DNA from: Halomicroarcula saliterrae
GTDB taxonomy: Archaea > Halobacteriota > Halobacteria > Halobacteriales > Haloarculaceae
NCBI RefSeq assembly: GCF_031624395.1
Contig: NZ_JAMQON010000007.1
Location: 1 to 64,000, forward strand
Reading direction: 5' to 3'
Length of the DNA stretch: 64,000 bases
The notes under the pieces are model-generated. The model had not been told where the DNA came from. It saw only the letters and a list, made by a program, of their open reading frames with translations, and did not search any database. The translations under genes were made by a program, and so were the position numbers. The first letter of the stretch is position 1. Every line of letters begins with the position of its first letter. Positions 1 to 55,341 of this stretch are shown piece by piece.

Positions 1-61
1 GTGCCGTGCGTGCGCGAAGCTGGTGGCTCGAATTCCGTGAAATCATCCTCAAAGCCACCGT

Positions 62-385
62 CTACAACCTTCGCCGGAGCGTCCGATATCCGTGAAATCC
101 AGCGCAGTGTACCGAAACTACAGAGCCCAACCAGTAGAACAGGTCGTCTAGTTCTTCTCTATCGATTGGGAACTCGGGTTCCAGATCCTTGGCTGTGTAT
201 CGAGCGCCCTTTAGTTTCTTTAGGAAGATATTGGTGACAGGTTCATCAAAAACGTAGACTTGGGAATTCTGGTCGGGGGACGGGACAGTATTCGCAATTT
301 TTCCTTCGACAACGACTTGATCGTTGTCTACGAGTCGTTGTTGTTCGGTAGCAAGTTTACTGTAGAATTCGTCAACGGGAATCAT
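62..385 (-). CDS. Hypothetical acidic protein, 107 aa
   Basis: The open frame begins with ATG at 385 and ends at 62. I do not recognise a family. The protein is acidic over its first 90 residues with alternating charged and hydrophobic positions, has no signal peptide or membrane segment, and ends in a basic tail (TLRRRL). It sits at the left edge of the accessory island and is separated from the next recognisable coding sequence by AT-rich DNA. It could be an intact small orphan or the truncated end of a longer gene; the abrupt change of composition near the C-terminus slightly favours truncation. Confidence 0.45.
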   Translation of the reverse strand: MIPVDEFYSKLATEQQRLVDNDQVVVEGKIANTVPSPDQNSQVYVFDEPVTNIFLKKLKGARYTAKDLEPEFPIDREELDDLFYWLGSVVSVHCAGFHGYRTLRRRL

Positions 386-1728: not shown

Positions 1729-2424
1729 TCAGTCGAGATAGTCCGGTCGCTCGGCATATGCAATGGGGTCGTGCTCTCCAAGACGCTGGAACGATTGCAG
1801 TCGGAACGCACACGCATCGCAGGTGCCACACGCTGGTGCTTCGTCCCGATAACAACTCCACGAGTGCTCGTACGGGACACCGAGTTCAAGCCCCCGCTCC
1901 GCGATGTCTGTTTTCGACCACTCGGTGAATGGCGCTTCAATCGATATGTCAGTCTCATCTTTCGTCCCCACATCAACTACTTGCTGGAACGCCTCGAAGA
2001 ACTCCGGCCGGCAGTCGGGGTAGCCCGAGAAGTCCTCTGAATGCGCTCCAATATACACTGAGCCACATTCGTTCGCTTCAGCGTATGAGACTGCCATCGA
2101 GAGCAAATTCGAATTCCGGAAGGGGACGTACGAACTCGGCACCTCCTCGCTTTCCAAGTCAGCGTCTTCCACTTCAACATCATCGTCGGTCAGACTCGAA
2201 TCACCGATTTTTGAGAGGTGGTCCGTAGTGAGGTGCAGAAAGTCTGCCGCCTCAAAATAGTCAGCCTGCGCTTTGGCACACTCCAGCTCTTTCGCTTCCG
2301 TCCGCTGGCCGTAGGACGTGTGCAGCATGTACAGGTCCTTGCCAGCCTCCTTCGCTACTGCTGCAGCAGTAGCGCTATCCATTCCACCCGATGCAAGTAC
2401 AACCGCTCGTGATTCTTGTGACAT
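1729..2424 (-). CDS. queC: 7-cyano-7-deazaguanine (preQ0) synthase QueC
   Basis: QueC makes preQ0 from 7-carboxy-7-deazaguanine, ATP and ammonia in the cytoplasm. The 231-residue product has the PP-loop ATP-pyrophosphatase signature SGGMDS at residues 12-17 and the C-terminal zinc cluster (CYRDEAPACGTCDAC), both diagnostic. The start at 2424 was preferred over an ATG at 2475 because it follows the folE stop by one base. It is the last gene of a tight queD-queE-folE-queC operon, so the operon encodes the complete route from GTP to preQ0. In haloarchaea preQ0 normally feeds archaeosine in tRNA; here the adjacent DpdA-like genes point to DNA as the destination (inference). Confidence 0.95.
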   Translation of the reverse strand: MSQESRAVVLASGGMDSATAAAVAKEAGKDLYMLHTSYGQRTEAKELECAKAQADYFEAADFLHLTTDHLSKIGDSSLTDDDVEVEDADLESEEVPSSYVPFRNSNLLSMAVSYAEANECGSVYIGAHSEDFSGYPDCRPEFFEAFQQVVDVGTKDETDISIEAPFTEWSKTDIAERGLELGVPYEHSWSCYRDEAPACGTCDACAFRLQSFQRLGEHDPIAYAERPDYLD

Positions 2425-2425
2425 A

Positions 2426-3034
2426 CTAGTTGCTCGCCTCATTGAATCGCCGCCGTTCATTGTCAGTCGGTTCACCGGCCACCGCTCTCGTTACGGTTTC
2501 AGTCTGCGTTTCGACACCGCGCATCGCTTCACAGAGATGTGTGGCGGAAAGCTCGACGAGGACAGCCTCTGCACCAAGTTCGTCACTGAGGCCGTGCGCG
2601 ATGTCCTGTGTCAGTTGTTCCTGCATGGTGAGTTGGCGTGACTGCCAACGAACATACCGGGACAATTTCGACAGCCCGACAACCTCTTCAGCCGGCCGGT
2701 ACGCAACGGTCGCCGTCCCGAAGTAGGGTAGGAGATGGTGCTCACAGAGACTGTAGACCGGTATCCCCGTCTTGACAACGAAGTTGTTACCGCTCGCTTC
2801 GAACGTCCGAAGCTCCGGTTTCTCCTCCAAGCGAGACCCTTCAGTCAGCGTCTCGAACGCGCTCGGAACACGACGTTGCCACGTCTCCTGAAGTTCTTCG
2901 CTTTCGGGATCCTCCCCGACCGCTTCTAACAGGAGTCGAACGCCTTCCTGAGCTTTCGACCAGTCGATTGCAGTCTCTCCGTCGTCAATACTCTCTACGC
3001 TTTCTATGGGCTCAGTTTGGACATCGTCAGTCAT
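2426..3034 (-). CDS. folE: GTP cyclohydrolase I, FolE (type IA)
   Basis: FolE converts GTP to 7,8-dihydroneopterin triphosphate, the first step toward preQ0. The 202-residue protein has the FolE zinc motif: C97-E-H-H near residue 97 (SLCEHHLLPYFG) and the second cysteine in THLCEAMRG at about residue 168. Archaea normally use the unrelated-in-sequence MptA/FolE2 type, so a bacterial-type FolE is unusual and fits acquisition with a mobile preQ0 cassette, as known in some phages and haloarchaeal viruses. The ATG at 3034 follows the queE stop by two bases; an in-frame upstream ATG at 3061 would overlap queE. Confidence 0.93.
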   Translation of the reverse strand: MTDDVQTEPIESVESIDDGETAIDWSKAQEGVRLLLEAVGEDPESEELQETWQRRVPSAFETLTEGSRLEEKPELRTFEASGNNFVVKTGIPVYSLCEHHLLPYFGTATVAYRPAEEVVGLSKLSRYVRWQSRQLTMQEQLTQDIAHGLSDELGAEAVLVELSATHLCEAMRGVETQTETVTRAVAGEPTDNERRRFNEASN

Positions 3035-3036
3035 CG

Positions 3037-3804
3037 TTAGGTCCCCGGCGCATCGTTCCACAAGTCCACATGCAAGCGCGGCGTGTATCGATAGCCGTAC
3101 TCCATCGCAAGTTCAGCCGTCGCCTCACGAGTCTCTTCTAACCGCTCTCTGGTTGCTCCTTCCGGCATCAACAGCACATCGTCATTTCCGATTCGTCGTG
3201 TTGTCGACTGGCGCAACCGCTGGAGCAACGATTCAATCTCCGGCATATCCTGGTCACCAGTCACGACGAACTTTAGTTGGAATTCGTACTGCTCGACGAG
3301 GGACGAGAGGGCGTCCATGTCCACGCGTCGCTCTTCGTGCTTGTCTTCCCACTCTCCCTCGCCTTTCGGGTCCTTCGCCGGCGTGGGCGTACTGCTTGCG
3401 AGCTTCGGGCTGATGCTGGCCAGGTCGATTGCGGCGTCTCTGTGAATCGTCCCGTTCGTTTCCACGGTGGTGTGGTAGCCGTTTGCTGAGAGTTGGTTCA
3501 GTAGCTCAACGACCTCAGTATGCATCATCGGCTCGCCGCCGGTGACAACGACGTGCTCACACTGTTCGTGTGACTCGACCTCTGCAAGAATCTCGTCGAC
3601 ATCCATCCACGCATGAGTGGGCTCCCACGAGGTGTGATAGGAATCACAGAACCAGCACCGGAGATTACATCCACTCGTTCGGATGAATACGGTCGGTACG
3701 CCGGCTAAGACGCCTTCTCCCTGTAGCGAGTAGAATAGCTCATTTATCGGGAGATCGCCCTCACTCTCAGACGCAACGTCGGTCGCGTCAGCGTTGACCG
3801 GCAT
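3037..3804 (-). CDS. queE: 7-carboxy-7-deazaguanine synthase QueE (radical SAM)
   Basis: QueE is a radical SAM enzyme that rearranges 6-carboxy-tetrahydropterin to 7-carboxy-7-deazaguanine. In this 255-residue protein the cluster-binding cysteines are C46, C50 and C53 (CNLRCWFC, spacing CX3CX2C), preceded by SLQGEG and followed by the SAM-binding TGGEP motif (residues about 88-92). It lies second in the que operon, three bases after queD and two bases before folE. Length and motifs are typical of the family, and nothing suggests inactivation. Confidence 0.95.
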   Translation of the reverse strand: MPVNADATDVASESEGDLPINELFYSLQGEGVLAGVPTVFIRTSGCNLRCWFCDSYHTSWEPTHAWMDVDEILAEVESHEQCEHVVVTGGEPMMHTEVVELLNQLSANGYHTTVETNGTIHRDAAIDLASISPKLASSTPTPAKDPKGEGEWEDKHEERRVDMDALSSLVEQYEFQLKFVVTGDQDMPEIESLLQRLRQSTTRRIGNDDVLLMPEGATRERLEETREATAELAMEYGYRYTPRLHVDLWNDAPGT

Positions 3805-3807
3805 GAG

Positions 3808-4269
3808 TTATGGGGCCGCACACAGTTCGCTGGTCTCTCGGACTGACACAGCGACTTCTGAGACGGTATCAGGGAGCGTGTCGCTCAGTTTCTCCTCTAA
3901 GAGGACCGCCATTACCTCTGCCGTAGGAGGGTGATCGAGGACAACCAATGCGTCCTCGTCGCCGCTCTGTTCAAACGCCTCGATCAGCGGATCACCCTGC
4001 TCGACGAGGAACCGGTGGTCCCATTCGGATATTACTTCAGTAATATCTCCCTTGTCGACGACCCAGCCCTCGGAAGTCAGTTCGCCGGTCACCGAAACGG
4101 TGATTTCGTAGTTGTGGCCGTGTGGTCTGCTACATTTGCCATTGTGATGGAGAATCCGGTGTCCAGAACTGATCCGGATTGGACGGTCTTCACCGACCCG
4201 CAGTTCTCTTTCACCAGCATCAACAAGAGGGATATCTGTTGGTTTGTCTTCAGATAATCTACTGGCCAT
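3808..4269 (-). CDS. queD: 6-carboxy-5,6,7,8-tetrahydropterin synthase QueD
   Basis: QueD converts dihydroneopterin triphosphate to 6-carboxytetrahydropterin, the step between FolE and QueE. The zinc ligands H37 (SGHRIL), H50 and H52 (RPHGHNYE) and catalytic C46 (NGKCSRPHGH) are all present in the 153-residue product. It is the first gene of the operon. A TATA element on the minus strand (CCTATAAGTG, near 4291-4300) is centred 26 bases before the ATG at 4269, which fits a leaderless transcript and fixes the start. The promoter is back to back with that of the DpdA-like gene, so the two units could be co-regulated. Confidence 0.94.
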   Translation of the reverse strand: MASRLSEDKPTDIPLVDAGERELRVGEDRPIRISSGHRILHHNGKCSRPHGHNYEITVSVTGELTSEGWVVDKGDITEVISEWDHRFLVEQGDPLIEAFEQSGDEDALVVLDHPPTAEVMAVLLEEKLSDTLPDTVSEVAVSVRETSELCAAP

Positions 4270-4290
4270 ATCCAGAGAATATCACAGTGG

Positions 4291-4300
4291 CACTTATAGG
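4291..4300 (-). promoter_or_regulatory. TATA element of the que operon
   Basis: CCTATAAGTG on the minus strand lies 26 bases upstream of the queD ATG, the normal spacing for a leaderless haloarchaeal transcript. Confidence 0.6.
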
Positions 4301-4365
4301 TACTCCTCTGAGCGGAAGTGGATCGTAGTTATTCGACTTACAATTTTCCGTGTCGCAATAGAGAC

Positions 4366-4375
4366 TTCTATAAGT
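4366..4375 (+). promoter_or_regulatory. TATA element of the DpdA-like gene
   Basis: CTTCTATAAG on the plus strand would start transcription near 4396, leaving a leader of about 17 bases before the GTG at 4413. An ATG at 4393 is followed by a stop after five codons, so it is not the start of the large protein. Confidence 0.45.
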
Positions 4376-4412
4376 CGGACTGTGATACACCGATGCAGGT
4401 GACTATCTAATC

Positions 4413-7322
4413 GTGCGGTTCTACGTGCCCGAGTGGGATGACGCCGTGGATGCGGACTATGATTTTGAGCATGATGAACGGTCGGATCCCCACCGGCAAG
4501 AACGCGAACTGAACTATATCTGGGACATCTTCGAGAAAGACTCGACGCCAATCGATGGCGTGCTCATCTCTCGAGAGCAGGTCGAATCGACCACGAAGAA
4601 AGCCGATCGGATTTGTGAACACGGCGTCTATGACGATCCGATTCTCGATATCCCGGAGTGGCTCCCGACAATCAGCGACTGTGGCGCATGGGGCTACAAA
4701 TCGCTCCCCTTCCCGCCGTACGGCAACCAAGACATGCTCGAGTTCTACGAGACACTGGATGTCTCGGTCGGCGTAACGATCGACCATCTCGTACTGGGCT
4801 CGGGTAAAGAGAAAGGGCGCCTCTATCTAGACGAGCGCGCTCTTGGTCACAACATTCGGAAATCGGATATCCCGTCAGCGGTCACCGATGCAGTCGACTT
4901 AATGATTGACGAATGGCCCGATGAGTGGCCTGAGTACGTTGAGGAGTACGAACCATCGCTTCGGTCACAGGAAGAGCCCCGACAGTTCACTGCTACCGAC
5001 TTCGAGGGCGATGTCGACGCCGTCTTAGAGAGGCTTGAGGACGACCCACGGGCGGTGTATCGCCAGGACGACAAGCAGTTCCGTTACGACCTCACTCTGG
5101 ACAACGCGGCGGAGATGTGGGACCTGTACCAGGCCGGCGACTACCCGTTCCGGTTGATGGTCGCCATCCAGGGATGGACGGTCGAATCCTATGCTGCAGC
5201 AGCTGAGGACGTTCTGAACATGGGTTACGATTACCTCGGCATTGGTGGCGTCGCCGGGAGTCCGGTCCACGAAGTCCGGAAAATCGTAAAGTCAGTTGGA
5301 AAAACGGTCAAGGACTACGAGCGGACGAATCAGACTCGCATCGATACCCACGTTTTCGGCTTCGCCAAATCAGACGCGTTCGAGACCATCGGCCGGTCCG
5401 GTATGTCGAGTTTCGATAGCGCGAGCATGCTTCGATCCGCGTGGACGGGTGGACAGAACTACCGCGTCGACGGTGACGAGCGATACGATGCTATCCGTGT
5501 CCAGTATCCCGCTCATGGCGCCGACATCTCCGATGCAATCGAGACTGCGTTGCGAGGGCGTGAGACGCTGATAGCACTACGTGCGTTCGCAGAGGATCGC
5601 TCTATTGTGGAAGCACTTCGGGAATGGGAGGCGGAAGCCAGCAAGACGCTCACAGAAACGATCACATACATGCGGAACCACCGCCACGATGGGCGATTCA
5701 ACGCCAGTCGTCTCCGTGACGTGGAAGCAGCACTGAGAGAGGATTTCGACTACGCCAGTAAACTGCAAGCCTATTTCAGCGATGATCTTCGGAGCCGACT
5801 TATCAAACTGCTCCGTGGAGACAGCAAGGAGAACCCCGAACCATTCGCAGAGTATATTGAGTTGCTCGCTGCAGCACGCACCGAACTGAATCGCTTCCCG
5901 AGAATGGTCGAAATTCTCGAACGCGAGGAAGCCAGGGCGGATGGTATGGACGCCTTCGAACGGCTCTGGTTCATACTTCAGGACTACGCTATCTGGATCG
6001 GGAACGAAGATCTCCTCGAAGCGTATCAAGAACTCCTCTCAAACAGGCCATGGGAAGACTGTGGCTGTCCTATCTGTACCGAGCACGGTATCGAGGTCTG
6101 CATCTTCCGCGGTAACGACCGCAATCGCCGTAGGGGGTTCCACAACACGGCGAAGTTCTACGAGGAGTTCTCTGAGGCGCTCCCAAAGACGCTTATTCTG
6201 ACCAAGGGGTCAGCTTCGTTTAGCAACTACGAGACCACTGAGGATTACTTAGCGAGCGAGCAAGCGCAGTTCTGGAGTGAAGTTCACGATCTCCCGGTTG
6301 CAGAGATTGGCGCCTTTGACGCAAATGGTGTGCACGAATGGTGGGCGGAGACGCCTCGTACAGTCTCTTTTGCGTCCACCAAAACGGCCGAAACACTCGA
6401 AGAGTATCTTGGACGGTATGAAGAACTCTATCTGTTCAATCCTGGGGAAGACACCGACCAGACGCTCGGTGGTTCGACAGTAGATGTGGATTGTGACATT
6501 CAAGACTTCGATGACCCACAAGAGCTACGAGAGACACTCCTGAGCGATCTTGGCCGTAATTATGCAGTCGGAGCTGATTTCGCCCCACACAAACCAGTCC
6601 TGAGTGTCGATGATGGCCTAGATATACTCATTATCGACCAGTGTTCTGGATCTAAATACGTCTCAGACAGTGACCTGATGTTCGGACCAGAGGAAATTGA
6701 CGCCTCTTCTAAACAGGAGATTCTCAGCAGGCCGAACACCAATGGGGTGCCTGCTAATAAATTATATACTGGTCGCCAACAAGAATCAATATCGACTGCC
6801 GTTCGTCACCTTCGGTCGAATGGGCATAATGTTGAAAGATATTTTATTAGTGCTGGATTTGGACTGGTTGGAGAAGAGGAGGCACTTCCGCCATACGAGG
6901 TTACCTTCAGTGGTATGAGTGTCTCTGAAATCCGAGAACGGTCAGCTAAACTTGGTATCAAAGAAGATTTATGGCGTATTCTGGACCAGAGAGAGTTTGA
7001 CATAGTGTTCTTCCCGCTTGGGAAAGATTACTACAAAAGTATCGATATTGACACCACTGTCCAACGAATTCAACCAGACCGGATTGGTGTCGTCTTCAAT
7101 AGGGAGTTGGTTGACGAACAGTATGAGAATATTGTTTCAGTGCCAGCTCGAACAGAAGATGCGAAACGTCACGAGACAATCGTAATCGGCCTCAAAGGAG
7201 TGTATATGGAGAACTTCGCACGGAATGTGAGTGATGTGAGAGAATTAGATCCAGATTCAATTAGTATCTTATGCCGATATGTTGAGGAAGACTCCACTCA
7301 GGCAGCTATCGAGAAGTTCTGA
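4413..7322 (+). CDS. dpdA: DpdA-like DNA transglycosylase fused to a YaaA/DUF6884-like domain
   Basis: This 969-residue protein is predicted to exchange guanine in DNA for preQ0 and perhaps process it further. Residues 1 to about 580 resemble the DpdA branch of the tRNA-guanine transglycosylases: the opening RFYVPEWDD, an active-site aspartate in SDCGAW (D89), VTIDHL (D124), the likely nucleophile D335 in SFDSAS, and a TGT-type zinc site C550, C552, C555, H577. Residues about 735-900 form a separate domain with QCSGSK (C744, K748), KLYTGR and SAGFGLVG, resembling YaaA/DUF6884. The bacterial Dpd pathway needs DpdC, recalled as a YaaA-family (DUF328) protein, to turn inserted preQ0 into the 7-amido base; a fusion of both activities is my inference. 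The start is GTG 4413, because a stop lies just upstream and no ATG is available. It is the only gene on its transcript and is divergent from the preQ0 operon. Confidence 0.82.
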   Translation: MRFYVPEWDDAVDADYDFEHDERSDPHRQERELNYIWDIFEKDSTPIDGVLISREQVESTTKKADRICEHGVYDDPILDIPEWLPTISDCGAWGYKSLPFPPYGNQDMLEFYETLDVSVGVTIDHLVLGSGKEKGRLYLDERALGHNIRKSDIPSAVTDAVDLMIDEWPDEWPEYVEEYEPSLRSQEEPRQFTATDFEGDVDAVLERLEDDPRAVYRQDDKQFRYDLTLDNAAEMWDLYQAGDYPFRLMVAIQGWTVESYAAAAEDVLNMGYDYLGIGGVAGSPVHEVRKIVKSVGKTVKDYERTNQTRIDTHVFGFAKSDAFETIGRSGMSSFDSASMLRSAWTGGQNYRVDGDERYDAIRVQYPAHGADISDAIETALRGRETLIALRAFAEDRSIVEALREWEAEASKTLTETITYMRNHRHDGRFNASRLRDVEAALREDFDYASKLQAYFSDDLRSRLIKLLRGDSKENPEPFAEYIELLAAARTELNRFPRMVEILEREEARADGMDAFERLWFILQDYAIWIGNEDLLEAYQELLSNRPWEDCGCPICTEHGIEVCIFRGNDRNRRRGFHNTAKFYEEFSEALPKTLILTKGSASFSNYETTEDYLASEQAQFWSEVHDLPVAEIGAFDANGVHEWWAETPRTVSFASTKTAETLEEYLGRYEELYLFNPGEDTDQTLGGSTVDVDCDIQDFDDPQELRETLLSDLGRNYAVGADFAPHKPVLSVDDGLDILIIDQCSGSKYVSDSDLMFGPEEIDASSKQEILSRPNTNGVPANKLYTGRQQESISTAVRHLRSNGHNVERYFISAGFGLVGEEEALPPYEVTFSGMSVSEIRERSAKLGIKEDLWRILDQREFDIVFFPLGKDYYKSIDIDTTVQRIQPDRIGVVFNRELVDEQYENIVSVPARTEDAKRHETIVIGLKGVYMENFARNVSDVRELDPDSISILCRYVEEDSTQAAIEKF

Positions 7323-7331
7323 GAGAAGACA

Positions 7332-7607
7332 CTATTCTCTTAGCATATCTTCGATTGCTTCAATCGCCCGGTGAAAATCTTGGCCAGTCTCCGTCGCATG
7401 GTATTTAACATTCTTTGGGCCCTCTTCAACACGTTCCACTAATTCATGTTCACACAGTAGCTCGAGTGCATCAGTGATAGTGTCGCTTGAAGAGGCAATT
7501 TCGCTCTCGATTTCAGAATAATTCAAGCTATCAGACGCAATCAAGAGTTCGAGAATTTCTATTGTGCGTTTTCGACCGATGAGTTCACGCACATCGTCTG
7601 AAACCAT
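7332..7607 (-). CDS. Small winged-helix transcriptional regulator
   Basis: The 91-residue protein is a single winged-helix DNA-binding domain: a recognition-helix region around SSDTITDALELLCEHELVE and a wing ending KYHATETGQ, as in HxlR/ArsR-like haloarchaeal regulators. It is convergent with the DpdA-like gene (nine bases between the stops) and divergent from the second transglycosylase. Two inverted repeats with CAAAG/CTTTG half sites occupy the divergent intergenic region, so it probably controls itself and the 7715-10805 operon (inference). Confidence 0.75.
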   Translation of the reverse strand: MVSDDVRELIGRKRTIEILELLIASDSLNYSEIESEIASSSDTITDALELLCEHELVERVEEGPKNVKYHATETGQDFHRAIEAIEDMLRE

Positions 7608-7630
7608 CTGCGGTCTCTTTCAGCGGAATC

Positions 7631-7652
7631 GACAAAGCCACTTTGATTTGTC
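7631..7652. promoter_or_regulatory. Inverted repeat over the regulator's promoter
   Basis: The outer arms GACAAA and TTTGTC enclose an inner CAAAG-CCA-CTTTG palindrome (7633-7645). It lies where the promoter of the regulator gene (ATG at 7607) is expected and shares its half site with the neighbouring palindrome. Confidence 0.5.
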
Positions 7653-7658
7653 GTACAT

Positions 7659-7678
7659 AGCTTTGCTGGAGCAAAGCT
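7659..7678. promoter_or_regulatory. Perfect 20-bp palindrome, candidate operator
   Basis: AGCTTTGCT and AGCAAAGCT are perfect inverted arms around a GG centre. The site overlaps the TATA-like TTTATC at 7678-7683 in front of the second transglycosylase gene, a position suited to repression by the adjacent winged-helix protein. Confidence 0.55.
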
Positions 7679-7714
7679 TTATCACACAGCCGAGCTTAGC
7701 ACAGCGCGTCGGAT

Positions 7715-8749
7715 ATGTTGTACAGACAACGAAAACTCGACACACCCCACGGGGAACTGCAGACCCCTGTGCTCTTTCCGGTGAGTAACATCGGGAAACG
7801 GTCGAGTGATAATACACCAGAATACACGGACAGTATCCCGGATTTGTCGACCGCAATGGTCAACGCCCGAGCGATACGGAATCGAGAGGCACAGTGGGAC
7901 CGACTACAGAACGGTGCGACTCTCCGTGAGGAGATGGATGTGGCAGACGACACAGTCATTTTCGCTGATAGCGGTGGCTTCGACTTTCACGAGGAGGAAG
8001 TCGACACTACACCAACGAAAACACTCGAAACGCAACGTGAATTGGGCGCTGATATCTTTGGCACTGTTGATACCCCTTTGTCCAGAGATAATCGCCAGGC
8101 GAAGAATCAGCGGCGAATCAATCGCAGTATAGAACTCGCATTAGAAGCGAGCGACGCACACGATGGTGATGAGACTCTACTAGCAAGTGTCCACGGGTAC
8201 GATCCTCAGACAGTCCGAAACTCGATTAGACATCTTGAGAAAGAGGGAAAATTCGATGGATACGCTGTCGGGAGCCTTGTTCCGATTCGAACAGATTACA
8301 AAAAAGTGACAAAAATAATTCTTGCGGCCCGACGTGCCACTGACAAACATCTCCATGTCTATGGGTTAGGTGGGGTGACATACCAGCCACTGCTTCTCTA
8401 CCTCGGTGTTGATAGTTTCGACTCCTCAGCGTTCATCCGCAGCGCGGGGAACCGGAACTATCTCATGCCAGGGTTCGGTGGAGAACCGCTGAAAAACGTA
8501 GAGGGATTGACTCACCTTCCCTGTGCGTGCCCGGTTTGCAGCACGCGAAGCTACGACAGGATCCGTAATGACAGGGATTTGCTTGTCCAGCACAATTTGT
8601 GGGCGTTAGCTCTCGAATTGCGACGGTTCAGATACATGCACGCTGCTGGTGAGGACTTGGAAGCGTACCTTGACCTCCGCTTCCAGGGCAACGAGGTTAC
8701 CCAGCGAGCGTATAAAATGGCGAAGCAACAGGTCAGGAGGCTCTCATGA
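7715..8749 (+). CDS. Second transglycosylase (TGT/DpdA family), 344 aa
   Basis: This is a compact TGT-fold enzyme with all catalytic features: TPHGELQTP near the N-terminus, D85 in ADSGGFD, D119 in VDTPLSRD, the probable nucleophile D236 in DSFDSSAF, and the zinc site C270, C272, C275, H293 (CACPVC...H). It lacks the PUA domain of archaeal tRNA transglycosylase and is far shorter, so a housekeeping archaeosine role is unlikely. Its place beside the preQ0 operon and the larger DpdA-like protein suggests a second DNA-directed base-exchange enzyme or a partner subunit (inference). Its stop overlaps the next start by four bases, so it heads a three-gene operon. Confidence 0.82.
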   Translation: MLYRQRKLDTPHGELQTPVLFPVSNIGKRSSDNTPEYTDSIPDLSTAMVNARAIRNREAQWDRLQNGATLREEMDVADDTVIFADSGGFDFHEEEVDTTPTKTLETQRELGADIFGTVDTPLSRDNRQAKNQRRINRSIELALEASDAHDGDETLLASVHGYDPQTVRNSIRHLEKEGKFDGYAVGSLVPIRTDYKKVTKIILAARRATDKHLHVYGLGGVTYQPLLLYLGVDSFDSSAFIRSAGNRNYLMPGFGGEPLKNVEGLTHLPCACPVCSTRSYDRIRNDRDLLVQHNLWALALELRRFRYMHAAGEDLEAYLDLRFQGNEVTQRAYKMAKQQVRRLS

Positions 8750-9651
8750 GCGACGAACGACCGACGGTCCGGCCCGTGACACTTGCCCGCCTCGTTGAGT
8801 TGACCAACGCTTGTGGCACCCAGGCACAGACAACGGAAGAGCTGGAAACGGCCTTAGATATTAGCCATCGACGAGCTCGAGAGACGATTCTTGAAGCAGT
8901 CCGTCTCAGTTTGTTGTCTGAAGAAGATACCAACCAAGAGGAGGCCCCCGAATATCAGACGACAACGGTCGGAGAGCATTTCCTCGACGCTGTTCGGGAC
9001 GAAGGTTGGGGGAAGGTAAGCGATATTCTCGAGTCGCGCAGTCCCCACTACGGAGCATTTCTAACGACTGTCGAAGAATTGGAACCCGCTGAACCTACGG
9101 CCATCTTGACGAAACTTGAAACTGATCATGAACATTCGCCGTACGCCTTTAACAAAACGAGTATCGACGTGATTGGCGACTGGGGAGAGCGATTAGGCGC
9201 GATTCAGCGTAATGCCTTCACGGGGTCGTACTATCGAGCGACTGAGACCGAGGTGCCACTGAATTTCCCGTATGTTCTGCTCTCGGTGTTCGATGACCTG
9301 GAAGAAACAGCGGGGGTAAACCTCAGTCAGCGCTACATATCGGTCCCAGAGGTGCGTGAGCATACTTGTGAGCGATTCGGTTGTACTCGGTCTGCGTTCG
9401 ATAAAGCGTTGCTCTCGCTTGTAAATCAGAACGTCGGCAAACTCGAGTTGTCAGGCGCGCCGATGGACACAGGTGCAAAAGACGCTCGCCTGGGTATCAA
9501 GCAAATCGCCTTAGCGGACTCGCAAGGATTAGTCTCAACGGACCAATCTACGGACCGTGTCATGAGCGGTGTTGAACAGTACGGAAAACAGTACTACTAT
9601 CTCGCGGTTCACGACGACGACCTTACCTACACACAGGAGACCAACGCATGA
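8746..9651 (+). CDS. Winged-helix protein of unknown function in the Dpd-like operon
   Basis: This 301-residue protein overlaps both neighbours by four bases. Residues about 10-75 look like a helix-turn-helix/winged-helix domain (ISHRRARETILEAVRL, then EYQTTTVGEHFLDAV). A second possible winged helix lies at about 200-240 (EVREHTCERFGCTRSAFDKALLSL). There is no nuclease or ATP-binding motif. Its position next to a AAA+ ATPase recalls DpdG/DpdH-type accessory genes of bacterial dpd clusters, but I see no sequence evidence that would justify that name. A DNA-recognition subunit for the ATPase is a reasonable guess. Confidence 0.7.
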   Translation: MSDERPTVRPVTLARLVELTNACGTQAQTTEELETALDISHRRARETILEAVRLSLLSEEDTNQEEAPEYQTTTVGEHFLDAVRDEGWGKVSDILESRSPHYGAFLTTVEELEPAEPTAILTKLETDHEHSPYAFNKTSIDVIGDWGERLGAIQRNAFTGSYYRATETEVPLNFPYVLLSVFDDLEETAGVNLSQRYISVPEVREHTCERFGCTRSAFDKALLSLVNQNVGKLELSGAPMDTGAKDARLGIKQIALADSQGLVSTDQSTDRVMSGVEQYGKQYYYLAVHDDDLTYTQETNA

Positions 9652-10805
9652 GCGACAGCGCATTCAACATCACTGATGACGAACGCGACTATTCGATGTA
9701 CAGCCTCGAAGAAAACCCCTTCCCCTACAGCCCCGTACCGGATGAAGATCCGGCAGTGTACTGTGGACAGGATCATGTGGCAGAGGCAGTCGGCGATACG
9801 GTTTCGACACTGCTGGGCACAGGCAAATCAAAACATCTCGTAATCACTGGGAAGTATGGGAACGGCAAATCACACACTCTGAAATACGCACGGTCTCTGG
9901 TCCGAGACCGTGAAGATGTCCTCGTCGGGTACGTGGCTCAACCTGGTGAGGGATTCCTCGATATTTACCACGAGTTCATATACGACATTGGGTTCGACCG
10001 GGTGCAGGAGATTGCCTACGAGTTTTTAGCGTCGACTGCGCGGGACGTGACGGATACGAACCCCGCTAATGCGGATGCGATGGAATCACTCATCGAGGAA
10101 GGCGAAGTGCTCCTTTCGGAGATAGTTCCGACCGCTATCCAGCGACTTAGTGACATCACGAAGTTTGCTGACTTCGCTCGCGCAATCATCCATATGGTCT
10201 ATGAGGACACAAATCTGTACGCCTGGCAGTGGTTGACTGCCGAGGGTATTCGGTACGAACAGCGGAAAGAGATGGAGATCCATAGTGCTCTGGACGATGA
10301 TACAATGGGTGTCCGAGCGTTTACCTCGTTCAAAAGCCTACTTCTGGAACTGGGTTACACGGGCGTTTTTGTCTTCATCGACGAGTTTGAGGCTATCTCT
10401 AGGTTAGGTAATAAAGATAAACAGGCCACGCTGAACAGTATTCGTCATCTCATCGATCAGAACGGCTCTGGGATGTCGATACTCTTCGCGTGCGCACCAG
10501 AAGTCTGGCAGGATGTAATGAGCGAGTATCACGCCTTTTCCGAACGCATCGGCAATGAAGTGGCGTTACGGCCCCTGACCGACGACCACCTAGAAGATCT
10601 AATTAGCAGCTATCTCCAGACCGCACGTACGAATGAATCTCAGAAGATTGAACCGTTCGAATCCGAGACGCTCGAACTCATTCATCAGCGGTCGCAGGGG
10701 AATATTCGCCAGGTGCTCTCTATATGCGGGAAAGCCCTTGATCAAGGTCTTGATCAAGGCCAGCAGACAGTGACACCGGAGCTCGTTCAAACAATCCTAG
10801 AATAA
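9648..10805 (+). CDS. AAA+ ATPase, Orc/BREX-like
   Basis: This is a 385-residue P-loop ATPase with Walker A GKYGNGKS at 68-75, Walker B VFIDEFE at 242-248, a sensor-like ILFACAP near 280 and an arginine-rich lid toward the C-terminus (SQGNIRQVL). The layout resembles ORC/Cdc6-type and BREX-type ATPases that act on DNA. It is the last gene of the 7715-10805 operon. It could power base exchange, as an ATP-dependent partner does in bacterial Dpd systems (where DpdB is needed with DpdA), or drive a restriction function. No nuclease domain is visible in the protein. Confidence 0.75.
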   Translation: MSDSAFNITDDERDYSMYSLEENPFPYSPVPDEDPAVYCGQDHVAEAVGDTVSTLLGTGKSKHLVITGKYGNGKSHTLKYARSLVRDREDVLVGYVAQPGEGFLDIYHEFIYDIGFDRVQEIAYEFLASTARDVTDTNPANADAMESLIEEGEVLLSEIVPTAIQRLSDITKFADFARAIIHMVYEDTNLYAWQWLTAEGIRYEQRKEMEIHSALDDDTMGVRAFTSFKSLLLELGYTGVFVFIDEFEAISRLGNKDKQATLNSIRHLIDQNGSGMSILFACAPEVWQDVMSEYHAFSERIGNEVALRPLTDDHLEDLISSYLQTARTNESQKIEPFESETLELIHQRSQGNIRQVLSICGKALDQGLDQGQQTVTPELVQTILE

Positions 10806-11178: not shown

Positions 11179-12163
11179 ATGACCACAGATCTCGATCCAC
11201 TTGACCCATCGACAGCAAAGGGGATGTACCTGGACGAACGCCGTCACGAAGTCGCAGATGCGACACTCCAGTCCCACGAGTACCGACTGCGGCAGTTCGT
11301 CCAATGGTGCACTAATGACGGTATCGACAACATGAACGATATCTCCGGACGAGACATCCATCGGTTCCGTGTCAAACGCCGTAACGAGGACGACCTGGCG
11401 ACACTCCGACTCTTCCTCCGTTTCTGTGCGAGCATTGACGCGGTCGAAGCCGGACTCGACGAGAAGATTATCTTGCCCACGACGACAGCGAAAGATGCTC
11501 GTGACGAACTTCTCCCAGCCGACCGAGCCGAAAAAGGTACTCGACCATCTCGAACAGTTCGAATACGCGACGCTCGACCACGTGCTCTTAGCAGTCATGT
11601 GGCACACCGGGCTTCGAGTTGGGGCGGCAGTCGGCCTCGATATTCGAGATTACGACTCAGACGAGCAGCATCTCGAGCTGGTGCATCGTCCCGCCGAGGA
11701 CACAGCGTTGAAGAACGGAACGGAAAGTGAGCGATTCGTCGCGCTGAGTGAATCGATCTGTGAGTTGCTGGACGACTGGCTATCCGTCAAGCACCCTGGG
11801 AAGCTGGACGAATTCGGTCGGCATCCGCTCTTTGCGACCAGCCGTGGACGTCTCAGTCGGAATCGAGCACGGTCGATCGCTTACCAGTACACGCGGCCGT
11901 GCGTGTACAGTGATTCGTGCCCACACAACCGCGATATCGAGACCTGTGAGTCACGGCCGACGGAGTACGCCTACGGCTGTCCGTCAGCACTGAGTCCCCA
12001 TCCGATTCGTCACGGATCGATTACATATCATCTACAGTCCGATACGCCCGAGCGTGTCGTGAACGATCGAATGGATGTCGGGATGGACGTGCTGGATCGG
12101 CACTACGACCAGCGGACCGAGCGAGAGAAAGTTGAGCAACGTCGGCGATATTTACCTAACTGA
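11179..12163 (+). pseudogene. Tyrosine recombinase (XerC/D-like integrase), frameshifted
   Basis: A haloarchaeal phage-type integrase of about 327 residues is split between two frames. The N-terminal SAM-like domain reads in the frame from ATG 11179 to DELLPADRAEK. The catalytic domain continues in the +1 frame from about 11535 with VLDHLEQFEYATLDH, HTGLR (catalytic Arg), HPIRHG (HxxR box) and the tyrosine in LDRHYDQ near the end. Removing one A from the A5 run at 11531-11535 restores a continuous, family-like sequence. This is either a true inactivating insertion or a homopolymer sequencing error. It would have mediated insertion of the island at the tRNA 3' end at about 14946. Confidence 0.8.
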
Positions 12164-12835: not shown

Positions 12836-14680
12836 TCATGCGTCAGCGTATTCATCCGGCCACCGTTCCCTGATAGCGCTGAGCATCCGTTCTTCACGAT
12901 TGCTGATTTGCTCTACTCCCCATTCGGGTTCGGAGAATATCTCTTCCAGCATCCGGATTTTCGATCCACTGAATTCTGCTTTCTTATCTCTGAATGGACT
13001 GTTTCCCTGGACTGCATTGTCCTCTGGCGTCATGAGCGCGAGATTCCCCAAACGATGCTTGTGTTCGTTGACAAGCTCCTTCGTTGAATCATCGAACCCT
13101 TCCTTCGGGGTCTGAGGCCAGACATGCTCGATAGAGTAGTTACCATCCTTGTTGCCAACGACCTCTTTCACATCAAATTGATATCCCTCCTTTTTACGTT
13201 CGAGCGTCCACTCGTAGGCGTATAGGAGGAGACGGAGTTCACTCTTCCTGTTCCCATAGTACTTAAACACATTTGAATCACCAAGCGTTGTATCAAGCTT
13301 GGCATCACTACAGTAATCGTGAATGTACTGTTCTAGACGACTGATCACGTCATTCACATCACAGGGAATAATTGAATCCAGGACCTCGTCTTTGTTATTA
13401 TAGTATAATTCACGAGCGCGAGGATATACTCGAGTCCGTCCTGTGTCGGCGCTCTTTTGCTCAATCACATACGTCCGTACGATGAATGTCTCGATCTTCC
13501 TAAGAAGAGTGCAGAATTCCTCTTCGGTGATCGATTCCTGTTTGTACTGGTCGTAGGCAGCCATCAGTAGTGGATAGAAGTTCCCGAGGCGACCAGCGAC
13601 GAACAGATCTCGGAGACAGTCTTCAAGCCTTTTACTGTCAATGCTGTCGTTCGTTTCGTGATTATACAACTCATCAAGCAGTTGGAATATCCTCTCTAGT
13701 TCTTGAACGTAGGTGATAATTTCCCCAGTATCTCCTACCTTGCGGAAATAGTCCTTGAGATGTTCGAGGTGATTCTGGTAATACCTGCTATCGTAGCCAG
13801 TGCCCCAGTCCGCGTTCCACATAATGAAGTGATATCTCTGAATCTGGTCCTCACTGGGGCCCGAAGAGATGTTGTCCACTGAATCATAAATTTCATCGAA
13901 GGACTCCTGGATCGTCTGAATAGATGAGTCAGCCTGCTGTTCGTCTTCCAAGAGTGACACGCGGTGCATCAAGTAGCTCTTCGTGATTTCGAGGTCTGTA
14001 AGATCCTTACCCCGGTCGTTGACTGTTTGGAAGATGCGAGCGGCTTCGCTACGTGAACCGACGGTGTACTCGAGCAATGGAAGTGATCGAATCTTTTGAT
14101 ACAACGCTTTATAGAATTCAAGAGGGTCATCTACAGAGATTTTCTCAAGTTCGTTCTTAGAAAGATTCTCTCTCAGAGTCTTCTTAGCCTTGAGAAGACG
14201 TCCCTGAGAAGGACTATCTGTGTCAGTGTCGGAAAGTTCATCTTCTCGTTGTCCCTTCCGGCTGGCGTTCAACACATTCTCGAGTATTGTTCGACGGAAG
14301 AACCGTTCATCGTCGCCGGCCAGAGTCAATTTCTGCTCTCCAAAACGTGCGATATAGTCCCCGCGAATTTGTCGCGCAGTGTTTTCTTCTCCGTACTCAT
14401 CAAGCACCTCTTGTATCTCAAAGAGTAGAATCGTGAGCGTCGTGAGCCTTTGCTGACCATCAATAATTTTGTGACTTGCGCCCTCGTTCTCCTCAGCATC
14501 CATAAGCAGGAATGTCCCGATGTAATGATCCCGATCCATCTCTACCGCTTCGACCAAGTCTGACCAGAGATCATTCACGTGTTCCTTTTCCCATGAGTAG
14601 TTCCGCTGATATGGCGGGACCTCGAAATATTTATCACCAGTAACGAATCCACTGAAATCCTCCGAGTCCGTACTTGCCAT
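12836..14680 (-). CDS. GmrSD-type restriction protein, DUF262 plus DUF1524
   Basis: This is a 614-residue two-domain protein. The N-terminal DUF262 (ParB/sulfiredoxin-like) domain has VPPYQRNYSW and IIDGQQRLT (residues about 72-80). The C-terminal DUF1524 HNH nuclease has IEHVWPQTP, then HRLGNLALMT and the asparagine and phosphate-binding residues after it. Known GmrSD enzymes are type IV restriction nucleases that cut DNA with modified bases. It is AT-rich like other island genes. The ATG at 14680 was preferred over 14704 because a TATA element (TTATAT on the minus strand, 14703-14708) is centred 26 bases before it. DUF262/ParB-like domains also occur in DpdB/DndB-type proteins, but the HNH domain favours restriction. 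Confidence 0.85.
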   Translation of the reverse strand: MASTDSEDFSGFVTGDKYFEVPPYQRNYSWEKEHVNDLWSDLVEAVEMDRDHYIGTFLLMDAEENEGASHKIIDGQQRLTTLTILLFEIQEVLDEYGEENTARQIRGDYIARFGEQKLTLAGDDERFFRRTILENVLNASRKGQREDELSDTDTDSPSQGRLLKAKKTLRENLSKNELEKISVDDPLEFYKALYQKIRSLPLLEYTVGSRSEAARIFQTVNDRGKDLTDLEITKSYLMHRVSLLEDEQQADSSIQTIQESFDEIYDSVDNISSGPSEDQIQRYHFIMWNADWGTGYDSRYYQNHLEHLKDYFRKVGDTGEIITYVQELERIFQLLDELYNHETNDSIDSKRLEDCLRDLFVAGRLGNFYPLLMAAYDQYKQESITEEEFCTLLRKIETFIVRTYVIEQKSADTGRTRVYPRARELYYNNKDEVLDSIIPCDVNDVISRLEQYIHDYCSDAKLDTTLGDSNVFKYYGNRKSELRLLLYAYEWTLERKKEGYQFDVKEVVGNKDGNYSIEHVWPQTPKEGFDDSTKELVNEHKHRLGNLALMTPEDNAVQGNSPFRDKKAEFSGSKIRMLEEIFSEPEWGVEQISNREERMLSAIRERWPDEYADA

Positions 14681-14702
14681 GTCCCCAAATGTATCCGGAA
14701 GC

Positions 14703-14708
14703 ATATAA
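14703..14708 (-). promoter_or_regulatory. TATA element of the GmrSD-like gene
   Basis: TTATAT on the minus strand lies 26 bases upstream of the ATG at 14680, which supports that start and a leaderless transcript. Confidence 0.5.
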
Positions 14709-53259: not shown

Positions 53260-53997
53260 TCAGTGCCCGTGGTGGAGGACGCCCTGGTCGGGGCCGTAGG
53301 CGTCGGCCAGCGCGTCGGTCTCGACGAACGTCTCGGGGTCGCCGTGGAAGAACAGCTCCCGGTTGAGACAGGCGATTTCGGTCGCGTGCGTGGTGACGAC
53401 ACCGATGTCGTGCTCGATGAGGACGACGGTGAGCCCCTCGTCGTTGAGCTCGTGGAGCAGGTCGTAGAACGCCTCGCGGGAGTCGGCGTCGACGCCGACG
53501 GTCGGTTCGTCGAGCGCGAGCAGGTCCGCCTCGGCCGCCAGCGCGCGGGCGATGAACACCCGCTGGCGCTGGCCGCCCGAGAGCCGCCCGACCCGGCGGT
53601 CGGCGAGGTCCCGGATGTCCACGCGGTCGAGCGCGGCCGCTATCGCGTCCCGGTCCTCGTCGCGGAAGGGGCGGAACGCCCGACGCGGATACCGGCCCAT
53701 CCGCACCGCTTCTCGCACCGTGACGGGCATGTCGCCGGCCGCCGCCGTCGCGTCCTGTGCGACGTAACCGAGGCGCTCGCCGTCCGCAAAGCGGTGGGCC
53801 GGCTCGCCAAACAGCGTCACCGAACCGCTGTCCGGCCGCCGGAGCCCGACCAGCAGCTCCAGCAGCGTCGTCTTTCCCGAGCCGTTCGGCCCGACGAGGC
53901 CGAGGAAGGCACCCGCGGGAACGCTCATCGAGACGTCCTCGACGACGGGCCGGTCGCCGTAGGCGAACGTGACCGCGTCGAGTTCGGCGACGGTCAT
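53260..53997 (-). CDS. Zinc/manganese-type ABC transporter ATPase (operon 2)
   Basis: The 245-residue ATPase has Walker A GPNGSGKT, signature LSGGQRQR and Walker B LLALDEPT, and is a close paralogue of the operon 1 ATPase. ATG 53997 overlaps the stop of the binding-protein gene by four bases; longer in-frame sequence upstream is antisense to that gene. Confidence 0.93.
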   Translation of the reverse strand: MTVAELDAVTFAYGDRPVVEDVSMSVPAGAFLGLVGPNGSGKTTLLELLVGLRRPDSGSVTLFGEPAHRFADGERLGYVAQDATAAAGDMPVTVREAVRMGRYPRRAFRPFRDEDRDAIAAALDRVDIRDLADRRVGRLSGGQRQRVFIARALAAEADLLALDEPTVGVDADSREAFYDLLHELNDEGLTVVLIEHDIGVVTTHATEIACLNRELFFHGDPETFVETDALADAYGPDQGVLHHGH

Positions 53998-55187
53998 CGG
54001 GCCCCGAGTGCCTCCGTCAACGTCGGCAGGTTCACCTGCTCCATCACGTCGACGTACCCCCAGTCCGACTCGGCCCACGACTCCCGCAGCCCGGGCATCG
54101 CCGTCAGCGGGAGCACGGCCTCGGCGTCGGTCTCCGCGACGAGCTGGTCGGCCGCCGTCTGGGACTCCAGCGGGTCGGCACAGATGTAGGAGAGCCCGTG
54201 CTCGTCGATGGCCATCTGGGCCCGTTCGATGTCGCTCGGGGTCGGCCGGTCGTCGGGCGAGGCGTCGGTCAGCGCCTCGACGCGGACGCCGTAGCGCTCG
54301 GCGAGATAGCCGAAGGCGTCGTGGCCGGCGACCAGGAGGACGTCCTTCGACGCGTCGGCGAGACGCGACTCGATGCGCTCGTCGAGGTCGGTCAGCCGGT
54401 TCCGAAACGCCTCGGCGTTGGCGGCGTAGCTGTCCGCGTTGTCGCCGTCGAGGTCCGCCATCGCCTGTTCGACGGTGCCGACGGCGGTCGCGACGCGGCG
54501 CGGGTCCATCCAGAAGTGGGGGTCCATCGACCCGTGGTCGTGATCGCCGTCCTCGCCTTCGTGAGTCTCTTCGTGGCCATCGTGTGTCTCGGTCCCGTGG
54601 TCGTCGTGGCTGTCGGTCCCGTGGTCGTCGTGGCTGTCGGTCCCGTGGTCGTCGTGGCTGTCGGTCCCGTGGTCGTCGTGGCTGTCGGTCCCGTGGTCGT
54701 CGTGGCTGTCGGTCCCGTGCTCGTCGTGGCTGTCGGTCCCGTGGTCGTCGTGGCTGTCGGTCCCGTGCTCGTCGTGGTGTTCCCCCTCGTGCTCGTCGTG
54801 GCCGCCCGCCCCGAATTCGAGCAGCGAGACGTCGGCGCTCGCGTCGACGGGCGTCACCTCGGCCCCGTCGGCCGACAGGTCGGCGAGGATATCGTCGGCC
54901 CACGGCTGGAACCCCGCCATCCCGTGGACGAACAGCGACGCGTCGTAGATGTTCTCGCGGACGCGCGGCCCGGGCTCCCAGCCGTGGCCGTGCTGTCCGA
55001 GAGGCACGAGCAGGTCGGTGGTCGCGCTGTCCCCGGCGACGTTGTCGGCGATGTCGCCGAAGACGAAAAACGAGGACTGGACGGCGGCGGCGTTCGATTG
55101 CCCGGAGCCGCCGGAACAGCCAGCGACGGCTCCGAGACCGGCGAGACCTGCGGTGGCGGCCAGCATTCGGCGTCTGGTGTACTCCAT
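53994..55187 (-). CDS. Metal ABC transporter substrate-binding lipoprotein with His/Asp repeat loop (operon 2)
   Basis: The 397-residue ZnuA-like protein has a Tat signal (YTRRRMLAAT) and lipobox (AVAGCSGG). Metal ligands are expected in GQHGHGWEP, DPHFWMDP and AGHDAFGYL. Between residues about 129 and 228 it carries a very long metal-affinity loop dominated by HGTDSHDD repeats. ZnuA proteins often have a His-rich loop for zinc capture, but this one is long and perfectly periodic. The start at 55187 is supported by a TATA element (minus-strand TTTAATAG, 55210-55217) 26 bases upstream. Confidence 0.92.
   Translation of the reverse strand: MEYTRRRMLAATAGLAGLGAVAGCSGGSGQSNAAAVQSSFFVFGDIADNVAGDSATTDLLVPLGQHGHGWEPGPRVRENIYDASLFVHGMAGFQPWADDILADLSADGAEVTPVDASADVSLLEFGAGGHDEHEGEHHDEHGTDSHDDHGTDSHDEHGTDSHDDHGTDSHDDHGTDSHDDHGTDSHDDHGTDSHDDHGTETHDGHEETHEGEDGDHDHGSMDPHFWMDPRRVATAVGTVEQAMADLDGDNADSYAANAEAFRNRLTDLDERIESRLADASKDVLLVAGHDAFGYLAERYGVRVEALTDASPDDRPTPSDIERAQMAIDEHGLSYICADPLESQTAADQLVAETDAEAVLPLTAMPGLRESWAESDWGYVDVMEQVNLPTLTEALGAR
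54585..54776. repeat. 24-bp tandem repeat (minisatellite) in a coding region
   Basis: The phrase GCTGTCGGTCCCGTG recurs every 24 bases at 54609, 54633, 54657, 54681, 54705, 54729 and 54753, preceded by one diverged unit. Each unit encodes eight residues (HGTDSHDD or DE) of the metal-binding protein on the minus strand. Near-identity between units implies recent copy-number change in whole-codon steps. Confidence 0.92.
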
Positions 55188-55341
55188 ATTATTAACTCTA
55201 AATCTATTTCTATTAAATCCTCTTATTCTACTCTCTTCTTTATTAATTTCTGAGCGGGCGCGCAGGCCCCGCATACAGGCAGTCTCCCGAGCAACCGACT
55301 GAATGGACGGGCCGTCGGGCCGCCGTGTGCCGTCTCGTCAG

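What the first reader, a model, noticed from the sequence alone, without database searches (positions are those of the whole stretch)
1729..10805. Candidate haloarchaeal DNA 7-deazaguanine modification (Dpd-type) island
A complete preQ0 operon (queD-queE-folE-queC) is divergent from a DpdA-like transglycosylase. A regulator and a three-gene operon with a second transglycosylase, a winged-helix protein and an AAA+ ATPase follow. All lie in lower-GC DNA next to an integrase and a tRNA. Bacterial Dpd clusters insert preQ0 into DNA with DpdA and DpdB; here no DpdB is visible and the partner set is different, so this may be a distinct archaeal version of the system.
Basis: partly seen in the sequence, partly recalled or inferred. 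Interest (0 to 1): 0.9.

Follow-up and report, generated by a model that had tools for sequence, protein, structure and literature searches.

The report
Archaeal two-transglycosylase DNA-base modification island
A salt-loving archaeon carries a mobile gene island that very probably swaps some guanines in its own DNA for a 7-deazaguanine base as a self-tag, next to a matching DNA-restriction operon; it is an archaeal relative of the bacterial Dpd system that does this with two transglycosylases and an AAA+ ATPase and without the usual partner DpdB.

Summary
Window 1.7-10.8 kb holds a full preQ0 operon (QueC, FolE, QueE, QueD), a true DpdA (NCBIfam DpdA over cutoff; best solved structure the DNA preQ0 insertase 7ui4), a regulator, a second transglycosylase (TGT2), a winged-helix protein and a BrxD-like AAA+ ATPase. 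That arm lies on another contig: an insertion sequence (8-bp target duplication) split one gene between the two contig ends, and beyond it follow an ATPase, a split DpdJ helicase and a PD-(D/E)XK nuclease. In 391 haloarchaeal genomes DpdA and TGT2 occur in 57 each, 56 shared; DpdB is nearly absent. The modification cassette stays constant while restriction arms are swapped (98.6% identical cassette, abrupt breakpoint). Four genomes of other classes of the phylum keep DpdA and TGT2-WH-AAA in one region although separated. Dpd-like haloarchaeal systems were named BRIGADE in a 2025 preprint; the two-transglycosylase, DpdB-less machinery is not described in the text I could read. New variant of a known kind. 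No chemical evidence exists yet.

The parts
1..127 (.). end of an insertion sequence (terminal repeat GGCTCTGTAGTTTCGG...), at the contig edge
   Evidence: 16/20 match to the inverted terminal repeat at the right end of contig C2
128..385 (-). 5' part (residues 1-~86) of a restriction-arm gene (c21b, about 413 aa) interrupted by the insertion sequence; the 3' part is at the right end of contig C2
   Evidence: 8-bp target duplication ACTGGTTG at window 128-135 and C2:650716-650723; joining the flanks in a script gives one open frame of 413 aa, against 411 aa in relatives
1729..2475 (-). QueC, 7-cyano-7-deazaguanine (preQ0) synthase
   Evidence: Pfam 2e-74; NCBIfam TIGR00364 over cutoff
2426..3061 (-). 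FolE-type GTP cyclohydrolase I
   Evidence: Pfam 7e-51
3037..3804 (-). QueE, 7-carboxy-7-deazaguanine synthase (radical SAM)
   Evidence: PHROG QueE-like 7e-57, NCBIfam QueE 2e-31
3808..4269 (-). QueD, 6-carboxytetrahydropterin synthase
   Evidence: Pfam PTPS 4e-21, TIGR03367 5e-21
4413..7322 (+). DpdA-DpdC fusion: DNA-guanine transglycosylase (residues ~1-600) plus DpdC/DUF6884 domain (residues ~737-945, window ~6621-7247)
   Evidence: NF041059 275 bits > 200; PDB 7ui4 1e-37; PADLOC DpdC 3e-9; split into adjacent DpdA (~735 aa) and DpdC (~235-250 aa) genes in about 25 relatives; catalytic Asp residues and Zn ligands invariant in 57-58 sequences
7332..7607 (-). winged-helix regulator, divergent from the TGT2 operon
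   Evidence: HxlR/HVO_A0261-like; homologue at the same place in about 10 other loci
7715..8749 (+). TGT2: second TGT-family transglycosylase, TgtA-like, no PUA domain
   Evidence: TIGR00432 142 bits, below the 350 cutoff; PDB 1iq8 4e-20; DSGG, FDSS, CxCxxC and HNLW motifs conserved in 57 of 57 at the catalytic and zinc-binding residues
8746..9651 (+). WH: 301-aa protein with a predicted N-terminal winged helix, function unknown
   Evidence: no family match above cutoff; conserved between TGT2 and AAA in nearly all loci
9648..10805 (+). BrxC/BrxD-like (ORC/Cdc6-type) AAA+ ATPase
   Evidence: Pfam BrxC_BrxD 7e-16; Walker A and B key residues invariant in 57 sequences

Best explanation
This is the modification half of a Dpd-like DNA restriction-modification system on a mobile island. 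FolE, QueD, QueE and QueC make preQ0 from GTP. [quoted passage not shown] TGT2, WH and the BrxD-like AAA+ ATPase form a second, separately regulated operon that takes the place of DpdB: most likely WH and AAA bind and open DNA, and TGT2 pairs with DpdA, as the two unlike TGT subunits pair in eukaryotes, to place or license the insertion. The tagged DNA is then spared by a restriction arm (ATPase, DpdJ-type helicase split in two genes, PD-(D/E)XK nuclease) encoded next door, whose first gene is interrupted here by an insertion sequence. Shown: gene content, family placement, invariant catalytic residues, co-occurrence, gene order, the IS junction. Inferred from known families: preQ0 synthesis, DNA as substrate, dADG as product. 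Inferred only: the DpdB-replacing role of TGT2-WH-AAA (about 0.5) and the pairing of the two transglycosylases (about 0.35).
For: DpdA identity. DpdC domain; PMC11888242 equates DUF6884 with dpdC; fused and split forms in haloarchaea, and a fusion in the opposite order (DpdC at the N-terminus) in Nostoc, Picosynechococcus, Paenibacillus and Allocoleopsis. Constant cassette: DpdA 57, TGT2 57, shared 56 of 391 genomes; of the two exceptions one is a contig end (G166) and one a decayed remnant (G034). DpdB absent in 50 of 52 carriers. Restriction arms: DpdH-like in 38 of 57, DUF1998-type in 17 of 57, and only 1 of 334 other genomes has either. TGT2-WH-AAA stays with the modification genes when the arm is exchanged: 98.6% identity over 10.7 kb with an abrupt breakpoint upstream of QueC, and 8 arm changes on the DpdA tree. 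In four genomes of other classes DpdA and TGT2-WH-AAA are kept although separated by the restriction operon. The genome has its own TgtA and ArcS.
Against: No chemical evidence of any 7-deazaguanine in this DNA. No direct evidence that TGT2, WH or AAA acts in modification rather than restriction or regulation; the AAA is distantly similar to the large restriction-arm ATPase (about 19-27%). Two carriers, G162 and G274, also have a DpdB-like gene near the locus, so TGT2 and DpdB do not exclude each other strictly. The WH model was too poor to interpret (pLDDT 42). Only one of several PADLOC DpdB models was searched.
Confidence: 0.72

Rival explanations
1. TGT2-WH-AAA belongs to the restriction or sensing arm: TGT2 probes or removes bases in unmodified DNA and the ATPase recruits the nuclease module.
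For: The AAA is of the BrxC/BrxD type and distantly resembles the restriction-arm ATPase. In one genome of another class (L139) the cassette lies directly upstream of, and co-directional with, the DpdH-DpdJ operon.
Against: When the arm is exchanged the cassette stays with DpdA and the preQ0 genes. It is also present in the carriers where neither arm type was detected, apart from the contig-end case G166.
Confidence: 0.17
2. The island protects a mobile element's own DNA from host restriction (counter-restriction, as in viruses with DpdA) and is not a host defence.
For: Lower GC, an integrase remnant and a tRNA nearby; relatives on plasmids; archaeal viruses use such bases for protection (PMC6884629).
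Against: 48 of 57 carriers also have a Dpd-type restriction arm in the genome; no orthologue in the phage records and none found for TGT2 in viral contigs.
Confidence: 0.08
3. The transglycosylases modify tRNA, and the island is an extra archaeosine or queuosine pathway.
For: TGT2 is nearer to tRNA enzymes than to DpdA.
Against: DpdA lies in the DNA-enzyme clade; TGT2 lacks PUA and forms its own clade; the host already has TgtA and ArcS; tight linkage with restriction genes.
Confidence: 0.03

Closest known systems
Bacterial Dpd system (dpdA-K, Salmonella Montevideo type)
   Same: preQ0 genes, DpdA, DpdC, a DpdJ-type helicase with a nuclease; DpdH-like ATPase and PLD nuclease in many relatives
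   Different: no DpdB; DpdC fused to the C-terminus of DpdA; added TGT2-WH-AAA operon; here the helicase is split in two genes and the nuclease is PD-(D/E)XK, not PLD; archaeal host
BRIGADE (PMC12458937, preprint 2025): Dpd-like systems reported only from halophilic archaea
   Same: 7-deazaguanine biosynthesis cluster plus YprA-family helicases and PLD or PD-(D/E)XK nuclease in haloarchaea; sister loci with two large YprA-type helicases and PLD fit it well
   Different: this genome shows one DpdJ-like helicase and no ARMADA-like one; the preprint text does not mention the transglycosylases, the DpdA-DpdC fusion or TGT2-WH-AAA; a similar layout also occurs in other classes of the phylum
Cyanobacterial, Paenibacillus and Deinococcus plasmid clusters with a second TGT
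   Same: DpdA with fused DpdC (N-terminal) plus a separate short TGT and helicases or ATPases, no DpdB annotated nearby (Nostoc, Picosynechococcus, Paenibacillus)
   Different: their short TGTs form separate lineages; no WH-AAA of this kind; no DpdA in the Deinococcus ficus stretch shown
BRC systems (PMC12839542)
   Same: a TGT combined with BREX-like ATPases
   Different: no PglZ or HerA seen in this locus; BRC systems are reported to lack DpdC

Membership tests
Dpd system | DpdA, DNA-type guanine transglycosylase | tested here: met
   NF041059 over cutoff; 7ui4 1e-37; DpdA clade 97-99
Dpd system | DpdB partner ATPase | tested here: not met
   no PDLC02811 match in this genome; 2 of 52 carriers match
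Dpd system | DpdC (optional, for dADG) | tested here: met
   DUF6884/DpdC domain fused at residues ~737-945
Dpd system | preQ0 synthesis genes | tested here: met
   QueC, FolE, QueE, QueD
Dpd system | restriction operon with DpdJ helicase | tested here: met
   911-aa helicase at the C2 end, DpdJ 1.5e-62
Dpd system | DpdH ATPase and DpdK PLD nuclease | tested here: not met
   no match in this genome; a different ATPase and a PD-(D/E)XK nuclease stand there
Dpd system | dPreQ0 or dADG in genomic DNA | not testable with these tools
   needs LC-MS/MS
BRIGADE | 7-deazaguanine biosynthesis cluster in a halophilic archaeon | tested here: met
BRIGADE | usually two YprA-like helicases, at least one ARMADA-like | tested here: not met
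   only one YprA-type gene found in this genome with the 1818-aa query; best match DpdJ
BRIGADE | PLD or PD-(D/E)XK nuclease nearby | tested here: met
   1069-aa protein, Dna2 / PD-(D/E)XK matches
archaeal tRNA TgtA | TGT2 scores as TgtA and has a PUA domain | tested here: not met
   145.7 bits against a cutoff of 350, 344 aa, no PUA; the true TgtA is at C2:109466 with 615 bits

The most novel reading that the evidence does not exclude
Archaea of this phylum modify DNA with a machine built of two different transglycosylases (DpdA and TGT2) and an ORC/BrxD-type AAA+ ATPase with a winged-helix partner, an independent solution to the step for which bacteria use DpdB; this constant modification core is combined with exchangeable restriction arms.
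Probability: 0.45. Interest if true: 0.78.

Novelty: new variant of a known kind. Interest (0 to 1): 0.64.

Why it matters
7-Deazaguanines in DNA are documented in bacteria, phages and a few archaeal viruses; if the prediction holds, about one haloarchaeal species in seven (57 of 391 sampled) tags its own DNA this way. The constant presence of a second transglycosylase with an AAA+ ATPase, and the near absence of DpdB, makes it testable how a DNA transglycosylase gains access to duplex DNA. The clean swap of restriction arms next to one modification core gives a natural experiment on which restriction proteins read the mark.

Tried and rejected
1) TGT2-WH-AAA as a stand-alone modification module: it looked so in L138-L141, where no DpdA lay within the 20-kb stretches, but DpdA over cutoff was found roughly 17-23 kb away in all four genomes, so this was dropped. 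2) Modification-only island: the window genome lacks DpdH, the 1818-aa helicase and PLD, but another restriction arm was found at the end of contig C2. 4) Attachment-site repeat of the tRNA-Asn 3' end: no exact match of 13 bp or more in the island or at the C2 end. 5) Structure of WH: AlphaFold pLDDT 42, not used. DpdA-DpdC model pLDDT 66 with a poor TGT core; used only for the fold search. 6) The DUF262/DUF1524 (GmrSD-like) gene at 12836-14704 as part of the system: only 5 of the other loci compared have a homologue, and a distant one, so not counted. 7) Papers on the Salmonella Dpd genes (PMC6207457, PMC4801273, PMC10164549) are not held; statements on them rest on PMC11888242, PMC12839542 and own knowledge.
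Full report
WHAT IS THERE. The window starts at base 1 of contig C7 of a 4.2-Mb haloarchaeal genome. Bases 1 to about 15,000 have a GC of 0.47-0.57, against about 0.65-0.75 over most of the rest. QueC, FolE, QueE and QueD form a complete preQ0 operon on the minus strand. The 969-aa protein is DpdA: 275 bits with NCBIfam NF041059 (cutoff 200), PADLOC DpdA 2e-73, and its best solved relative is 7ui4, the DNA preQ0 insertase (1e-37). Its C-terminal part, residues about 737-945, is a DpdC domain (PADLOC DpdC 3e-9, Pfam DUF6884); PMC11888242 names DUF6884 as dpdC. A divergent regulator, a second TGT (TGT2, 344 aa), a winged-helix protein (WH, 301 aa) and a BrxC/BrxD-like AAA+ ATPase (385 aa) follow.

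ENZYMES. Against 7ui4, DpdA keeps the DCGA motif, the SfDs nucleophile region and the CxCxxC...FHN zinc site. Against the archaeal tRNA enzyme 1iq8, TGT2 keeps DSGG, FDSS, CxCxxC and HNLW. The key residues are invariant in 57 TGT2 and 57-58 DpdA sequences, and Walker A and B in 57 AAA sequences. TGT2 is under strong purifying selection against pHsi139 of Haloarcula sinaiiensis (dN 0.088, dS 2.1). A tree puts haloarchaeal DpdA with bacterial DpdA (97-99 support) and TGT2 in its own clade nearer to the tRNA-type enzymes. The host has a separate true TgtA and ArcS, so TGT2 is an extra paralogue. Foldseek with the DpdA-DpdC model gives 7ui4 as the only match below 0.001, though the model is only fair.

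THE RESTRICTION ARM AND THE CONTIG BREAK. ORF 62-385 is the 5' end of a gene whose 3' part lies at the right end of contig C2. Both contig ends carry the same 8-bp duplication (ACTGGTTG; window 128-135 and C2:650716-650723), next to inverted terminal repeats that match at 16 of 20 bases; joining the flanks gives one open frame of 413 aa. So C2 and C7 are neighbours separated by an insertion sequence that broke the assembly and the gene. Next on C2 come a 258-aa protein, a 1134-aa AAA/coiled-coil ATPase, a 911-aa DpdJ-type helicase (1.5e-62), a 701-aa protein with an MrfA zinc-binding (DUF1998-type) domain and a 1069-aa protein with PD-(D/E)XK and Dna2 nuclease matches. The low-GC island spans C2 from about 635.5 kb to 650.85 kb, the insertion sequence, and C7 1 to about 15 kb.

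DISTRIBUTION. In 391 haloarchaeal genomes DpdA occurs in 57 and TGT2 in 57, with 56 shared. G166 has DpdA at a contig end where TGT2 would lie off the contig; G034 has TGT2, a truncated WH and no DpdA. The order DpdA(-DpdC), TGT2, WH, AAA is kept in most loci, and preQ0 genes are present in about half. About 30 loci have the fused enzyme and about 25 have DpdA and DpdC as adjacent genes, with two changes on the DpdA tree. In bacterial DpdA proteins of Nostoc, Picosynechococcus, Paenibacillus and Allocoleopsis the DpdC domain is at the N-terminus, so the two were joined in both orders, which supports a shared pathway. Plasmid-borne named examples are Haloarcula sinaiiensis pHsi139 and Haloferax alexandrinus pBNX82-4. 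These co-occurrence figures include linkage and shared ancestry, so the Fisher values are not independent-event probabilities.

RESTRICTION ARMS ARE EXCHANGED. Two main arms were found. One has two proteins of unknown function, a DpdH-like ATPase (PADLOC DpdH 6e-14), a small protein, two large YprA-type helicases and a PLD nuclease. The other is the one of this genome. DpdH-like is in 38 of 57 carriers, the DUF1998 type in 17 of 57, and one of 334 non-carriers has either. G110 and G051 share a modification cassette of 10.7 kb at 98.6% identity and then differ abruptly upstream of QueC, where their arms differ. On the DpdA tree the arm type changes at least 8 times. TGT2-WH-AAA stays on the modification side of that breakpoint, which argues that it belongs to modification.

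BEYOND HALOARCHAEA. In 365 genomes of the phylum, AAA relatives of 42-46% identity occur in four genomes of other classes. Each has TGT2-WH-AAA (TGT2 37-38%, WH 32-35%) beside a DpdJ or DpdH type arm. I first took this as a DpdA-free system; a family search then found DpdA above cutoff roughly 17-23 kb away in all four, in three of them at the far end of the arm and without a DpdC match. That DpdA and TGT2-WH-AAA are kept together although separated strengthens the functional link.

DPDB. The PADLOC DpdB model finds nothing in this genome and matches in 2 of 52 carriers and weakly, on another contig, in one of the four other genomes. PMC12839542 notes that DpdB has been held dispensable in certain clusters. 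Some bacterial clusters without annotated DpdB also have a second short TGT, while Allocoleopsis has a DndB/DpdB-type gene and no second TGT in the stretch seen.

MECHANISM. From established pathways: GTP to preQ0 by FolE, QueD, QueE and QueC; exchange of guanine for preQ0 in DNA by DpdA; conversion to dADG by DpdC. The role of TGT2-WH-AAA is inferred: it replaces DpdB, with WH and AAA acting on DNA and TGT2 pairing with DpdA or working as a second insertase. The modified DNA would be spared by the restriction arm. Here the first gene of that arm is interrupted, so the arm may be impaired while the modification genes are intact.

KNOWN OR NEW. PMC12458937 (2025 preprint) names BRIGADE, Dpd-like systems found only in halophilic archaea, with a 7-deazaguanine cluster, usually two YprA helicases and a PLD or PD-(D/E)XK nuclease. 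Its text, as held, has no mention of a transglycosylase; its supplement was not readable here. This genome meets the biosynthesis and nuclease features but shows one DpdJ-like helicase, so I do not file it as BRIGADE; it is a Dpd-like relative with the same modification core. GATOR-GC required dpdAB and so would miss it. I rate it a new variant of a known kind, with the composition of the modification machinery as the new part.

Noticed in passing
window 12836-14704 (-): GmrSD-like DUF262/DUF1524 protein (PADLOC HEC-06 7e-70) between the broken integrase and tRNA-Asn; a DUF262 gene also precedes the cassette on Haloferax pBNX82-4. Probably a separate defence gene.
   Followed up: partly
window 11179-12163 (+): tyrosine-recombinase-like gene whose N- and C-terminal parts lie in different frames, so probably a pseudogene; not related to the integrase of pHsi139 by tblastn.
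   Followed up: partly
L127:11576-12049 (Haloarcula sinaiiensis pHsi139): EVE-domain protein (a possible modified-base reader) inserted between DpdA-DpdC and the regulator of the cassette.
   Followed up: no
L133 and L137 (Haladaptatus YSMS36 and Natrinema SYSU A 869 plasmids): a different kind of about 670-aa TGT-family protein; two copies in Haladaptatus, one with large helicases nearby in Natrinema. They are the nearest outside relatives of TGT2 and may mark another TGT-based system.
   Followed up: partly
L128, L129 (Nostoc NIES-3756, Picosynechococcus PCC 73109) and L134 (Deinococcus ficus) plasmids: short second TGT encoded next to DEAD/DEAH helicases; in the cyanobacteria between two helicases and beside a DpdC-DpdA fusion.
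   Followed up: partly
G162 C4:122047-123114 and G274 C1:843029-844189: DpdB-like genes near the cassette in two carriers, in G274 between DpdC and TGT2.
   Followed up: partly
L061:11162-11986 (-) and similar genes in other loci: CARF-domain Csa3-like regulator divergent from the DpdH-type restriction operon, which hints at control by a nucleotide signal.
   Followed up: no
window 55642-56907 (-), GC 0.52-0.56 at 55-58 kb: second low-GC patch with a Fic-type protein (motif HPFKDGNGRVGR) in otherwise high-GC DNA.
   Followed up: no
window 53994-55274 (-): metal-binding lipoprotein-like ORF with a long run of near-identical HDDHGTDS repeats, beside an ABC-transporter ATPase.
   Followed up: no
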